In this document: positions 39,422-44,694 of the stretch, piece after piece
Position numbering within the stretch: the stretch's first letter is position 1
Layout: every line of letters begins with the position of its first letter
NCBI RefSeq assembly: GCF_000313135.1
Contig: NW_004457592.1
Location: 445,760 to 509,759 of the forward strand
DNA: 64,000 nucleotides
DNA from: Acanthamoeba castellanii str. Neff
Taxonomy: Eukaryota > Discosea > Longamoebia > Acanthamoebidae
Direction: 5' to 3'
The notes under the pieces: generated by a model
What the model was told of the DNA's origin: nothing
Database searches by the model: none
The model's input: the letters and a program-made list of their open reading frames with translations, nothing else
Made by a program: the position numbers and the translations under genes

Positions 39422-40330
39422 CTATGGCCAAAAGTGGAAGACCATATCATCTCGGCTGCGCAGATTTCGCAAGATGGCCTCGGTCTGCGCGAGAGTGTGT
39501 GGAAAAAGGTCTCTAGGCCAGTAGGGCACCATCATGGGGTGGTGGAAGTGGAACTCGACCATGAGCTCGTCGATCAGGCGAATGGCGCCGGTCAGCTCCA
39601 GCCGCGGGATGATGTTCCACTCCTCCCCTTCGATGTCGATCTTGACCACGCAGTAGTCCTTGCGCTCGACATGCGCCAGCAGGAAGTGGTTGAGGTCGCC
39701 CGGCGAGTGGTCGGTCAAGTTGGCGCTGACTCTGGCGGGGAAGAGGGTGATGCTGTCAAGCCATCGCGTGGCAGCGTCGGCGGTCAGGTTGTACACGGTT
39801 ACGGCAGCCCCGGGCTCGGGCTTCTCGAACAAGTCCTCCATCTCTTCCCAGGCGTAGATCTCGGTGAAGTCGACTGGGTAGTTGGCCTTCATCCAACCCA
39901 CGCTCGAATTGAAGATGTTGGCGCCCACGTCGAGATAGACCCGGCGCGGTGGCAGTACGGCAGCGAGTGCCTGGCGCAGCGGCAGCTCGCGCTCACACTG
40001 GCCACTTGCGTGGTCGAGCTTGTTGAGCCGGCAGAGGTGCTTGTGGATCGAGTGCGGCAGCAGCCGCAGGAAGGAACGGTCCTCCAACTTTTCGCGGCTG
40101 AAGCTGCCGTTGGCGTTGGGCCGGTAGCGAAACATGTTCTCGCTGAGCAGGGGCTCCACCTCGAGGTCTGGCAGCGGCAGCGAGCTGAAGGGCGGGAGGG
40201 AGTAGCGGCCGCCAGAAGAAGGCGCCTCATGAAGCGGCAGGGCGAGAGGCCACAGAGACTCATAGTTTACAAATAACAACCAGACGCACAACAGCCCCAC
40301 CAACAGACACGCAGGGCCGGTCTTCTTCAT
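39422..40330 (-). CDS. Membrane-anchored FkbM-like methyltransferase, intronless
   Basis: A single exon of 302 codons. Residues 1-24 form a signal anchor (MKKTGPACLLVGLLCVWLLF), so the rest likely faces the Golgi/ER lumen. The body has RRVYLDVGANIFNSSVGWM, a SAM-binding motif I; DFTEIYAWEEMEDLF; YCVVKIDIEGEEWNIIPRL, resembling the FkbM DIEG motif; IDELMVEFHFHHPMM; and ends HTLAQTEAILRNLRSRDDMVFHFWP. FkbM proteins methylate hydroxyl groups on sugars or small molecules. With the anchor, a glycan substrate is plausible but inferred. It is one of only two clear intronless genes of normal length in the window, which may point to late acquisition or retroposition. Confidence 0.75.
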   Translation of the reverse strand: MKKTGPACLLVGLLCVWLLFVNYESLWPLALPLHEAPSSGGRYSLPPFSSLPLPDLEVEPLLSENMFRYRPNANGSFSREKLEDRSFLRLLPHSIHKHLCRLNKLDHASGQCERELPLRQALAAVLPPRRVYLDVGANIFNSSVGWMKANYPVDFTEIYAWEEMEDLFEKPEPGAAVTVYNLTADAATRWLDSITLFPARVSANLTDHSPGDLNHFLLAHVERKDYCVVKIDIEGEEWNIIPRLELTGAIRLIDELMVEFHFHHPMMVPYWPRDLFPHTLAQTEAILRNLRSRDDMVFHFWP

Positions 40331-40424
40331 GATCGAAAGGACGAGAAAAGAACAAGTCAGTCCCGGGCCAGTAACAATTTCCTTTCTTGTATTTATTGGT
40401 ATTATTTATCTCATCTTTAGCCTG

Positions 40425-43400
40425 TCAGCAGTCGATGGTGCCCTTGGAGGTGAGGACAGGATCACGTGGCTCGTCCATGTCGTGCCGCACACCTTGTGTT
40501 GTTGTTGGTTGTTGTTGTGTTTTTTCGTGGAGCAGTCAGAAAGGTGTTAAGATGATGTGAACTTGATTTGATGGAGAACTAAAGGTACCGATGTAGGAGG
40601 GAAAGCGCGGGACGCCGTCGGGCGTGAGCTCCTGGAAGCGATACGTGATGATCGCCCCCACCGCCGGCGGATCCTCGCGTTCGGCATCCGACAACCTGGC
40701 CATCGTCGTCGACGACATCAACCATCAGTCTGTGGCCCAAACTGTGGTCCAAAGCCTTCGCGTGAAGTGCGTACCCGGTGCCGACTTTGAAGCGGGTGCC
40801 GTTTGCCATCTTGCAGTTGAGGGCGCCCACGCGGCCCTTGTGCTTGCCCTTACCGGGCTCGTAGGAGAGCACGACGGCTTCGGCGTCGTGGAAGCTCTTC
40901 ACCTTGAGCAGCGTCGTCGAGCGACCGGCCACGTAGAGCGACTTGGGCTTGCGCAGCATGACGCCCTCCCCGCTCTTCTGCTCGATCCGCTTCAGCTCGG
41001 CCTCGAGGTGGCTCTGCCCCTTGCACCTGGTCATCTTGAGCACCTGGTGCCCAACAAACCGCCACCGATCAGCACAAAGTCAAGTGTGTGTGTTGTGTTG
41101 TGTGTGCTGTGCTGCGTGCGTGCGTGCGTGCGTGCGTAATACCTTGGCGTAGTCGGTGGGATGAGCGCTGAACCAGTCGTTGATGGCCTGGAGCCTCTCT
41201 TCAAAGGTTTTGTTGAGACCCGGAGCATCGAAGATCTGTTTATCAAATGGAGCTAAGTATGATGACTCGTGCATGAATGCCGCACCCACACCCATCGCAC
41301 GCACACGCGCAAGTGTGACATATCTACCTGGAATTTGAGGTTCTTCCACCGCACGTCTGATCCCTGGCTCTTGGCCACCGACACTGTGATCTGGAACTTG
41401 CCTCGGCCGCCGAACAGTTCCTGCGCGGACAACGGAGAGTACTTTGGTGAGACCCCAAAGAACTCCAAAAAGGCGCCGGCTGCCGCGAGCAGTGTGTGCG
41501 TGTGCGTGTGTGTGCGTGTGTGTGCGTGTGTGCGTGTGCGTGTGCGTGTGCGTGTGCGTGTGAAAGAGCGTACGCCATCCAAGGGCATGTTGGTCGGAAG
41601 TGCCTCACAGAACCAATCTAGAGAGGGGAAAACAGCAAAAGTGTCAGTGATGTTGGTATTTCTGTGTTCGATGTGCTTGTGCGGCGTACCCGGCGCGTAG
41701 AAGGCATTGCCAAGGCGCGAAATAAACGCTTTGCCGTTCCAGTAGGCGCGCACGCCGTCCTGCCACACAGCAAACGTTTGCGTACGCGCAGGTGTGAGTT
41801 GACGATGTGGTGCTCGCAAGAAAGGGGAGAGCGAGGTACGAGCTTCTCGGACAGCCACCAGCCGGTCGGGTCGACGCTTGGCTCCCATTTGTGAGCCAAC
41901 AGGAGCTTGGGCGCGTCCTTCTTGGACGCTGTGAAATATGGCAGTGAAAATCAGTTGGCTGACCCATTGGTTGCGCGCGTGCGGTGGTGGCGCGCGTACC
42001 TGCTTTAACGATGGGCGCCGAGGCAGGCCGACCACAGCGCACGGTCTCGTACTCATCGCCCAGAAATTCGCGCAGATGCTTGCACGTGCGCCTGCGTTGT
42101 TGTGTTGACGTGCGTCGTGTCAGGCCTCAGTGTTGTGGTCTGAGAGCGCGCGTGCGCGTGCGGCCTGTAAAAGAAATCCAAGGAGCTGGGTACCTGTCGA
42201 CGGGCTGGTTCTGGTTCTTCCACGCAGGGCACAGGCAATAGTAGATGTCGCCCGCACACTTCTTGATCTGCCACTTGCCTGAATGTGTCCATATTTGCGC
42301 ATAAATAAATAAATAAATAATAATGTAATTATAATTAAAATGAGGTAACGCACTGCCGCCGCTCATGGACTCGACCTCGCGCGTCTCGCCGTCTTCCATC
42401 GTGTTCTTGGGCTTCGGCAACTTCACCTTCCTGCGCGCGCAGTGTTCAGCTTACACAGTTCTTGCCGAGGTGAATCGACGCAACTAAGCAGCGCGGTCGT
42501 ACCCTTCTTGGCCCCAGTTACCGCCGCCGCCTAGCTCATCGCCGCCGCCGCCCTCCGCCTCCGCCTCACCTTCGTCATCGTCGTCGTCATTGACCGGAGC
42601 TGCGGGCTTGGCCTTCTTCTTGGTCACAGCCTTTTCCTTGACCACCTCCTCCTCTTCCTCCTCCTCGTCTTCTTTGTCATCGTTCTTGCTGCTGCCTCGA
42701 TTCTCCCACTCGTTCATGAGCTGCATGAACTTTTCTTCGGTCCACACCTCGCATCCGCAGCTCTCCGCCTTCTCCAGCTTAGCACCGGCCTTATCACTGT
42801 AGCGCATATGTGCGGCGGTCGCGCAAAATTGTGTAGCGCGCGTGTGAACCACGATGCAGCGCTCTGCAATTCTGATAAGAGCGGGCCGTAATCGTACCCA
42901 CAGATCACGATGTCCGTGTTACGGGTGACGCCGCTGCCCACCAAGGCACCCATCTCTTTGAGCCTGGTCGGTGGTCGACGAAAAAGCGAGAACTTAGTGT
43001 ACGGACGGGCTGGTCTCAGTCCGAAAAGAGAGGAAACGTACTTGGCGGTGGCTTCCTTGCGTGCCATCATGAGTGCGCCGGTGAGGACGACCACCTTACC
43101 GACCACCTGCGCCGCCAGGCCTGAGACCCATGGGTCATGAGAGTCAGTAATTCCGTCGGTGGCCGCCCTCTGGAGTGGGCTGAAGGAACGAACCTGATGA
43201 AGGGTCGGCCTTCTTCTTTGCCTCGGTCGTGGCCTTGGCCTTGGTCGGCTTGGGCGCCGGAGTGGCGGTGGACTTGGCCGGTGCCGGTTTCTTCGCTTCC
43301 TTTGGCTTGGGGGCAGCAGCCGCTTCGTCGTCGTCCGGGTGCGAGAATCGGGCACGATGGTCGGCATTCCTGATGTGGGCGATGAGAAAACCAAAATTAA

Positions 43401-44694
43401 TATTAAAATTAAAATTAAATAACGTGGACGCGGCGCAACAACGTACTTGCGGTAGCAGTCGGCCCCGAAGGAGCATGCAGGCTTGGAGCCGGCGCTGTCG
43501 CTGTCAAGCTTCCGCTTCTTGGACTTGGGCCTGGGCGAGTCCCAGGGTATGTCCTAGGCGCAAGAACAAACGTTGGTGGTGGTGGTGGTCGTGTCAGCTG
43601 AGTGGTGTCCATTCATCAAACAATTGAAGGAGACGTGGTGTGCGGTTCACTCACCTCGCTCGAGGCGACGGGCTTCTCCTCCTTAGCCGCCTGCACTTTA
43701 GCTTTTTCCTTCTTCTTCTGCTTCTTCTCTTTCTCGAGCCTTTCGGCGAGACTGGTCACTTCGTCGTCGATCGACATGTCCAGCTCCTACGCGAATCAAG
43801 TCACCACACGACACGACCACGCCACATGCGACGTGATGAGACCATAGCGATTCGCCTCTCGCCATTCAGCCGAAGGTAGGGCAGACGGACCTGGGTCACC
43901 CTGGGGCTGACGTCACCCCCACCCTCGTCGTCCTCTTCTTCGGCAAATTCCTTTTGCAGGGCTGCCAAGTCCATTTCGTCGGTGTCCTCGCCGTCCTCGA
44001 CGCCGTCGTCCACCCAGGGCTTGGGCCGTCCATCACCGCCGCTTGCCGATGATGATGCGCGCGACGACGAAGAAGAAGACGACGACGACGACGATGACGA
44101 TGACGAGGCCACAGCGGGTTCCTCGAGATTGCGCTTCCTGGCCGAGGCGGAAGGCGCGAAGTTGAAGCAGGGCACGTCCATGTCCACAACGAGACGAACC
44201 GCGCCTGGTTGTGTTGTTCACATGTTAACGTAAACGTAAACATAAAGGTTTGCACACTGAAGTGGTTCCACGCACCAGCGCCATCGGAAATGACGAGCGA
44301 GATGGAGTCGCCGGAGATGAGGGACGCCGGCGGGTCGCCCTTGCCCAGGTTGAGCTCCTCGCCGGTCTGCGTGGAGCGGAGCACCACTGCGTTGGTGCCC
44401 AGGGCCTTCACCTCGACCCGGGCCTCGGCTCGCAGAAAGCGGAGCTCGACGTGCTGGCGCGACACGCTGCGGCACTGTCCCGGCGACAGGCGCTCCTTCA
44501 GCCCCAAAAAGTCTGTCTCTCGGCCCAACACCAGCGGCTGCACACCATCGCAAAGAATTAAAACAAAAATGAAGATAAAAAGAGAGGGCCAACGAAAAAG
44601 AAAGATTAAATAAGTGCTGGGCGGCATGTACCTGGCCAGGACGAAGTACGCACAATCGCTCCGCATCATCTCTCAGGTAGCAGTGCAAGAGCAT
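40425..44694 (-). CDS. Multidomain ATP-dependent DNA ligase: FHA - PBZ - BRCT - SWIM - ligase
   Basis: About 17 exons from ATG 44694 to TGA 40427-40425. Domains in order: a PNKP/aprataxin-like FHA (PLVLGRETDF, SRQHVELRF, ALGTNAVVL); a Ser/acidic linker; a Lys-rich coil; a PAR-binding zinc finger split by an intron (C-x5-C-YRKNAD-H-x5-H, about 43460-43340); a BRCT domain (VVGKVVVLTGALMMARKEA, GALVGSGVTRNTDIVICG, GCEVWTEEKFMQLM); an acidic linker; a SWIM-type motif (YYCLCPAW ... RTCKHL, CxC...CxH); then the nucleotidyl-transferase with motif I SEKLDGVRAYW (active Lys), motif III LDGELFGGRGKF, motif IV EGVMLRKP, motif V LLKVKSFHDAEA and an OB-fold ending FPSYIGVRHDMDEP. The ligase part resembles small bacterial/viral ATP ligases. 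A role in sealing DNA breaks at poly(ADP-ribose) sites is inferred from the domains. Confidence 0.9.

What the first reader, a model, noticed from the sequence alone, without database searches (positions are those of the whole stretch)
40425..44694. One-chain break-repair ligase: FHA, PBZ, BRCT and SWIM modules fused to an ATP-dependent DNA ligase
Seen directly: a PNKP-like FHA start, a C-x5-C-x6-H-x5-H PAR-binding finger, a BRCT domain, a CxC...CxH SWIM motif, and ligase motifs I, III, IV and V with a C-terminal OB fold. All are linked by in-phase GT-AG introns in one gene. Known: in animals, FHA (aprataxin, PNKP, APLF), PBZ (APLF), BRCT (XRCC1, LIG3) and the ligase sit on separate proteins held together at breaks. 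Inferred: this protein could find poly(ADP-ribose)-marked or phosphorylated repair sites and seal the nick without scaffolds. I do not know whether this combination has been described.
Basis: partly seen in the sequence, partly recalled or inferred. Interest (0 to 1): 0.9.

Follow-up and report, generated by a model that had tools for sequence, protein, structure and literature searches.

The report
Repair ligase with built-in targeting modules
A microbe, probably an amoeba, appears to make one DNA-sealing enzyme that carries its own set of damage-finding parts, an unusually complete version of a ligase family already linked to radiation tolerance in rotifers.

Summary
Confirmed as one gene. 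The minus-strand model (44694-40425) has 20 exons and 19 GT-AG introns, encoding 859 aa. A transcript-derived relative, P0007, has the same order FHA-PBZ-BRCT-SWIM-ligase on one chain; a closer relative, P0001, is one uninterrupted frame through 17 of 19 junctions. Pfam passes PBZ, BRCT, ligase and OB. FHA is sub-threshold in the window protein but passes in P0007, and a three-sequence profile finds the aprataxin/PNKP/APLF class. Pfam SWIM misses the window protein, but 120 of 120 listed relatives have the motif. The core is bacterial-LigE type, not animal Lig1/3/4. PBZ-bearing LigE/LigK is already published (PMC6264785, PMC10665377), so this is a new variant of a known kind; the texts I searched do not describe FHA, BRCT or SWIM on it. 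'Without scaffolds' is doubtful: this FHA class docks on phosphorylated XRCC1/XRCC4, and the genome has an XRCC1_N gene with a nearby TEEMD-type motif array that the ligase echoes. Best reading: a probably nuclear ligase brought to breaks by poly(ADP-ribose) and a phosphorylated XRCC1-like scaffold. Function is untested.

The parts
40425..44694 (-). whole gene, 20 exons, 859-aa FHA-PBZ-BRCT-SWIM-LigE ligase
   Evidence: spliced model with 19 GT-AG introns, one terminal stop; P0001 continuous through 17 of 19 junctions, P0007 aligned through 19, linkers poorly
44179..44694 (-). FHA domain, about aa 1-117 (exons 1-3), aprataxin/PNKP/APLF class
   Evidence: G26 R27 S47 R48 H50 N70 shared by three ligase FHAs; profile finds aprataxin, PNKP and APLF FHA; Pfam FHA_2 sub-threshold here, above it in P0007
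43966..43992 (-). acidic motif GEDTDEMDL (aa 180-188), candidate phosphorylation site of the type seen in the XRCC1-like locus
   Evidence: GEDTEEMDL in P0001
43330..43484 (-). PBZ finger, aa 281-306 (C284, C290, H297, H303), split by intron 5
   Evidence: Pfam zf-CCHH 44.2 bits; APLF PBZ structure 2kqb E 2.7e-8; F286, Y291, R292 at the ADP-ribose-contact positions named in PMC6264785
42718..43100 (-). BRCT domain, aa 359-426 (exons 7-9), bacterial LigA-like
   Evidence: Pfam BRCT 34.3 bits; LigA models 61.7 and 56.1 bits over this stretch, below their full-protein cut-offs
42076..42237 (-). SWIM-type finger CxC-x14-CxH, aa 538-557, split by intron 11
   Evidence: motif in 120 of 120 listed relatives and 103 of 115 further ones from a core-only search; Pfam SWIM does not match here
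40467..41911 (-). LigE-type ATP-dependent ligase core, aa 589-846, catalytic lysine Lys611 at 41843-41845
   Evidence: Pfam, PDB LigE 8u6x 1.3e-61 and 4d05 5.5e-60, NCBIfam PRK09125

Best explanation
The gene encodes a single-chain, probably nuclear, ATP-dependent DNA ligase of a SWIM-LigE subfamily. Shown by sequence: a LigE core with its motifs; a SWIM-type finger just in front of it; a LigA-like BRCT; a PBZ finger with most ADP-ribose-contact residues; an N-terminal FHA of the aprataxin/PNKP/APLF class. Inferred: PARPs mark a break with poly(ADP-ribose), which the PBZ finger binds; the FHA docks on a phosphorylated TEEMD-type motif of an XRCC1-like scaffold; SWIM and BRCT help hold the nicked DNA, standing in for the helical DNA-binding domain that LigE lacks; the core then seals the nick with ATP. 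It thus unites recruitment functions that animals divide between APLF-like adaptors and Lig3.
For: One chain: in-phase 20-exon model; same order in transcript-derived P0007 and an uninterrupted frame in P0001. Catalysis: motifs present; the P0007 model is 44% identical to LigE 8u6x over the aligned stretch. SWIM: 120 of 120 and 103 of 115 relatives, spacing x14 in 189 and x15 in 34 of 223, within 110 residues of the catalytic lysine in 220 of 223; pLDDT blocks of 84-97 in P0007. PAR system in the genome: 28 PARP and 13 PARG exon matches. Scaffold: XRCC1_N, and 1.2 kb on a 456-aa frame with four TEEMD-type motifs. In the window plus 31 own-genome loci (365,750 six-frame residues, overlaps counted again) the motif pattern occurs only in the ligase, that frame and a BRCT stretch on C235.
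Against: No transcript of this species, no binding, localisation or ligation data. The FHA_2 and SWIM Pfam models do not pass in the window protein, and its FHA alone finds no FHA structure. Only one PBZ, and PMC6264785 cites studies that tandem PBZ fingers bind about 1000 times more tightly than single ones; though AvLigE-A, with one PBZ, had the larger effect in human cells (PMC10665377 passages). The first ADP-ribose-contact tyrosine is Phe. LigE binds DNA stably with no appended domain (PMC6144786 passages), so SWIM need not be a clamp. XRCC1_N and the motif array were not shown to be one gene; the motif pattern was made after seeing it in the ligase and that array, and the loci scanned were picked for repair domains. 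AlphaFold did not model the P0007 FHA well (blocks of 28-72 pLDDT).
Confidence: 0.62

Rival explanations
1. It is simply the local form of the already described PBZ-bearing LigE/LigK ligase, with FHA and BRCT as lineage-specific decorations that change little.
For: Core and PBZ shared with published eukaryotic LigE/LigK; accessory domains vary: by the Pfam column, PBZ in 15, BRCT in 11, FHA_2 in 1 and WGR in 65 of the 120 listed relatives (counted by eye).
Against: FHA, PBZ and BRCT recur together in P0007 and in a second gene of this genome, and the FHA keeps its shared residues.
Confidence: 0.26
2. Two adjacent genes (an APLF-like FHA/PBZ/BRCT gene and a ligase gene) were joined by eye.
For: No RNA from this species; the linker around exons 9-10 is acidic, low-complexity and poorly aligned.
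Against: P0001 and P0007 are each one frame through the equivalent linker; no stop inside the joined frame.
Confidence: 0.05
3. It is an organellar LigK-like ligase whose N-terminal domains serve something other than nuclear repair.
For: LigK of kinetoplastids shares the two core domains (PMC10665377 section 7).
Against: The N-terminus is an FHA, not an obvious transit peptide; a basic KSKKRK stretch before the PBZ resembles a nuclear signal (read from the sequence; the signal type is recalled). No localisation program was run.
Confidence: 0.07

Closest known systems
Eukaryotic DNA ligase E/K with PBZ (Adineta vaga AvLigE-A/B, Mortierella verticillata, Thecamonas trahens; PMC10665377, PMC6264785)
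   Same: LigE core (PF01068 + PF14743) plus PBZ finger(s) on one chain; PMC6264785 says extra domains such as PBZ generally lie on the N-terminal side, as here
   Different: AvLigE has its core at the N-terminus and PBZ behind it. FHA and BRCT are not in the LigK section of PMC6264785 (read whole); 'swim', 'fha' and 'brct' have 0 occurrences in the main text of PMC10665377 (figures not held)
Leader-less Myxococcales LigE cluster with a few eukaryotic, mainly fungal, sequences (PMC8455567, passages)
   Same: Same core family; likely the bacterial side of the SWIM-LigE group (my inference)
   Different: That study took ligases of 250-370 aa; 'swim', 'wgr', 'brct', 'pbz' have 0 occurrences. Here bacterial members carry SWIM, often WGR, sometimes BRCT
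Bacterial LigE (8u6x, 4d05, 6gdr)
   Same: Catalytic core and motifs
   Different: Most LigE lack appended domains and have a predicted leader for the periplasm (PMC6144786 passage)
APLF
   Same: FHA at the N-terminus plus PBZ
   Different: No ligase core and no BRCT (recalled)
DNA ligase III with XRCC1
   Same: BRCT and zinc finger on a ligase that works at PAR-marked single-strand breaks (recalled)
   Different: Other ligase subtype; here FHA and PBZ are on the ligase itself
Dictyostelium APL, Ku70 with PBZ, and macrodomain-bearing DNA ligase III (PMC8529158, passages)
   Same: An amoeba joining ADP-ribose readers to repair proteins; APL has FHA and PBZ

Membership tests
DNA ligase E/K family | PF01068 adenylation plus PF14743 OB domain | tested here: met
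   PRK09125 327.6 bits against cut-off 200
DNA ligase E/K family | Nucleotidyl-transfer motifs with KxDG lysine | tested here: met
   Lys611 and five further motifs; E657 K658 L659 D660 G661 invariant across 46 aligned relatives, P0007 numbering
Bacterial periplasmic LigE | N-terminal leader peptide and no appended domains | tested here: not met
   four appended domains, N-terminus is an FHA; no leader predictor was run
PBZ proteins | C-x5-C-x6-H-x5-H with ADP-ribose-contact residues | tested here: met
   44.2 bits; second Tyr and Arg kept, first Tyr is Phe (sequence against positions named)
PBZ proteins | Binds poly(ADP-ribose) | not testable with these tools
   needs a binding assay
Aprataxin/PNKP/APLF FHA class | Profile match to that class and shared FHA residues | tested here: met
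   rests on a three-sequence profile, since the window sequence alone finds no FHA structure
Aprataxin/PNKP/APLF FHA class | Pfam FHA_2 above cut-off | tested here: not met
   16 bits against 23.1 in the window protein; 27.9 in P0007; 18 in the C233 paralogue
Aprataxin/PNKP/APLF FHA class | Binds CK2-type phosphopeptides | not testable with these tools
   needs a peptide-binding assay
SWIM zinc finger | CxC-xn-CxH pattern | tested here: met
SWIM zinc finger | Pfam PF04434 match | tested here: inconclusive
   no match in the window protein; 9 of 46 relatives at E<=1, best 7.1e-5
BRCT | Pfam BRCT above cut-off | tested here: met
   34.3 against 21.3
DNA ligase III | DNA_ligase_A_N helical DNA-binding domain and Lig3 BRCT | tested here: not met
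   neither family listed for the joined protein at E<=1

The most novel reading that the evidence does not exclude
SWIM-LigE is an overlooked ligase subfamily spanning Myxococcota and eukaryotes whose near-constant SWIM finger is its DNA clamp and whose break-sensing modules are swapped by kingdom: WGR (a PARP DNA-sensing domain) in bacteria, PBZ/BRCT/FHA in eukaryotes. In this lineage it has become a main break-sealing ligase, docking by FHA on a phospho-TEEMD array of an XRCC1-like scaffold and on the same motif in its own chain, so that ligases cluster at PARylated breaks.
Probability: 0.3. Interest if true: 0.78.

Novelty: new variant of a known kind. Interest (0 to 1): 0.6.

Why it matters
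[quoted passage not shown] A form that also carries an FHA of the scaffold-docking class and a BRCT gives a natural test of how much recruitment, rather than catalysis, limits break sealing. The family also suggests that bacterial and eukaryotic relatives added different damage-sensing domains to one catalytic unit, and the TEEMD-type motif is a concrete FHA-ligand candidate shared by ligase and scaffold.

Tried and rejected
The window FHA alone against PDB sequences gave only de novo trefoil designs through a short stretch, rejected as chance; four- and three-sequence profiles resolved it. A homolog search with the P0007 FHA found only P0007 itself at E<=1e-3 among 94 candidates; that search sees only proteins of like length sharing short exact words, so FHA-LigE elsewhere is not excluded. 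Origin by transfer from bacteria was not shown: in the 121-row tree the named eukaryotes lie in one 48-row set and the named bacteria in the other 73 rows, but with two distant LigE outgroups the 25 rows I called eukaryotic are not one clade (best tree holding them together 19.25 log units worse, p-AU 0.0585). P0193, which I called bacterial without a name to go by, sits there with a eukaryotic row; the kingdom of unnamed metagenome rows is my assumption. The genome-contig scan with P0092 found 5 loci, too few for a distribution. Lig3: DNA_ligase_A_N occurs on C15 and C78 only; LIG3_BRCT hits C235, where tblastn of C15/C78 reading frames found no ligase exon (not a complete view), so presence of Lig3 is undecided. 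Literature searches: ('SWIM-type zinc finger' with 'DNA ligase': 0 papers). Only PMC papers under CC0, CC BY or CC BY-SA are held; figures and preprints are not.
Full report
The observation. On the minus strand of 44694-40425 I rebuilt one gene of 20 exons with 19 introns, all GT-AG, 71-153 nt long, giving 859 aa and one terminal stop. Keeping an intron would shift the frame or add a stop in 15 of 19 cases. Pfam passes its cut-offs for PBZ, BRCT, DNA_ligase_A_M and DNA_ligase_OB_2.

One chain or two genes. A search with residues 500-859 gave 943 relatives among 5425 candidates, 120 listed. P0007, named by its source as an ORF of a Trinity transcript, has FHA_2, two PBZ, BRCT, ligase and OB on 910 aa. 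It aligns through all 19 junction positions, but in the linkers (for example exons 3/4, 6/7 and 9/10) the alignment is too poor to test the junction itself. P0001 (702 aa on a 2191-nt contig, 76% identity over the query part) is one uninterrupted frame through 17 of 19 junctions and begins behind the FHA. These make the split-gene alternative unlikely; no RNA of this species was seen.

The ligase core. Sequence (8u6x 1.3e-61, 4d05 5.5e-60), NCBIfam PRK09125 (327.6 bits) and the fold search with the P0007 model (8u6x, 4d05, 6gdr on top) all say LigE. The motifs from KxDG (Lys611) to LLKVK are present, and the KxDG lysine is invariant in 46 aligned relatives. No Lig1/3/4 helical domain is matched.

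The SWIM finger. CxC-x14-CxH lies at 538-557, 54 residues before Lys611. All 120 listed relatives have CxC..CxH. That search included the finger, so I also searched with the core alone: 103 of 115 newly listed proteins have it, and three of the 12 without it keep a cut RTCKHL or RSCKHL remnant at their start. Among the 223 with it, the spacing is x14 in 189 and x15 in 34, and it lies within 110 residues of the lysine in 220. Pfam SWIM does not match the window protein and matches 9 of 46 relatives, best 7.1e-5. I regard the finger as a near-constant part of this subfamily, and its clamp role as inference; LigE without appended domains binds DNA stably (PMC6144786 passages).

PBZ and BRCT. The PBZ (CSFGADCYRKNADHRARFSH) matches the APLF finger structure 2kqb at 2.7e-8. 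Of the ADP-ribose contacts of the first APLF finger named in PMC6264785 (Y381, Y386, R387), the second Tyr and the Arg are kept and the first is Phe. The BRCT resembles that of NAD-dependent bacterial LigA; P0049 and P0092, unnamed proteins that I take to be bacterial, also have a BRCT in front of SWIM.

FHA. The window FHA alone is weak (16 bits against 23.1; no FHA structure). With P0007 and the C233 copy it shares G26, R27, S47, R48, H50 and N70, and their profile finds aprataxin 1.1e-7, PNKP 1.8e-7 and APLF 0.0023. AlphaFold did not model this domain well in P0007. The FHA of APLF binds CK2-phosphorylated XRCC4 and/or XRCC1, and a title in the same paper's reference list extends this to aprataxin-family FHAs (PMC5207133, passages).

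The genomic setting. The genome (38.4 Mb, 250 contigs) has nine PBZ matches, the intron-split PBZ of the window gene not among them, 28 PARP and 13 PARG exon matches, one XRCC1_N match (28.3 bits; a typed piece 22.2 bits) and two loci with DNA_ligase_A_N. From 1.2 kb beyond XRCC1_N a 456-aa frame carries DSDTEEMDELDL-type motifs. The pattern [GSDE][DSGE]T[DE]E[MI][DE] occurs in seven distinct places in the window and 31 own-genome loci: once in the ligase, four times in this frame, twice in a BRCT stretch on C235. I read it as a candidate FHA ligand, with the caution that the pattern was drawn from the first two genes, that the loci were mostly picked for repair domains, and that XRCC1_N and the array were not shown to be one gene.

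A second copy. Contig C233 (L022) holds FHA, PBZ, BRCT, adenylation and OB pieces in the same order. PBZ, BRCT and the catalytic pieces are found by tblastn; the FHA I read by eye, and it is 35% identical to the window FHA but below the Pfam cut-off. Neither the SWIM finger nor the KxDG stretch is found in the 8.7 kb; nothing corresponding lies between MSE and SRLGN. It may be a non-ligating copy, a decayed gene or an assembly gap.

Relatives. By the Pfam column, PBZ occurs in 15, BRCT in 11, both in 8, FHA_2 in 1 and WGR in 65 of 120 (counted by eye); none of the 120 has both PBZ and WGR. In the tree of 121 rows the named eukaryotes lie in a 48-row set and the named bacteria in a 73-row set, each at 99. 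With two distant LigE outgroups the window gene, P0001 and P0007 stay together (97/82), but the rows I called eukaryotic are not one clade. I therefore claim no direction of transfer.

What is known. PBZ-bearing eukaryotic LigK/LigE is described in PMC6264785 (section 9 read; other passages) and PMC10665377 (section 7 read; other passages). PMC8455567 (passages) noted a leader-less Myxococcales LigE cluster joined by a few eukaryotic, mainly fungal, sequences. In the passages and sections I opened, FHA, BRCT, SWIM or WGR on LigE is not mentioned, and the listings show no paper that by title or abstract start describes it; figures, subscription journals and preprints are not covered.

Verdict. 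Real, one gene, a new variant of a known kind. The full five-part order was seen in the window gene and P0007; the C233 copy has it without SWIM. What the parts do is inferred from their families.

Noticed in passing
L022 1680-4545 (G000:C233, minus): Second FHA-PBZ-BRCT-LigE gene in which the SWIM finger and the KxDG lysine stretch are not found; possible non-ligating or decayed copy, or assembly gap.
   Followed up: partly
L023 2000-4430 (G000:C9, minus): Neighbouring exon pieces with zf-PARP (41.4 bits), FHA, PBZ and CUE (23.8 bits); perhaps an APLF-like adaptor with a PARP-type finger. One gene not shown.
   Followed up: partly
L036 3518-4885 (G000:C218, plus): Array of acidic TEEMD-type motifs in a frame 1.2 kb beyond an XRCC1_N match; candidate phospho-docking array.
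   Followed up: partly
L040 3389-4900 (G000:C235, minus): BRCT stretch with a LIG3_BRCT match (33.6 bits) and two TEEMD-type motifs.
   Followed up: partly
relatives P0028, P0092, P0098, P0049: SWIM-LigE proteins, by the named ones mostly Myxococcota, often carry a C-terminal WGR domain (P0028, P0092) and some an N-terminal BRCT (P0092, P0098, P0049; WGR of P0049 sub-threshold).
   Followed up: partly
relatives P0002, P0003: Two Agaricomycete fungal proteins with four SWIM-type motifs before the LigE core.
   Followed up: no
window 39425-40405, minus: Uninterrupted 327-aa frame next to the ligase with weak FkbM methyltransferase similarity (18.3 bits, cut-off 22.7).
   Followed up: no
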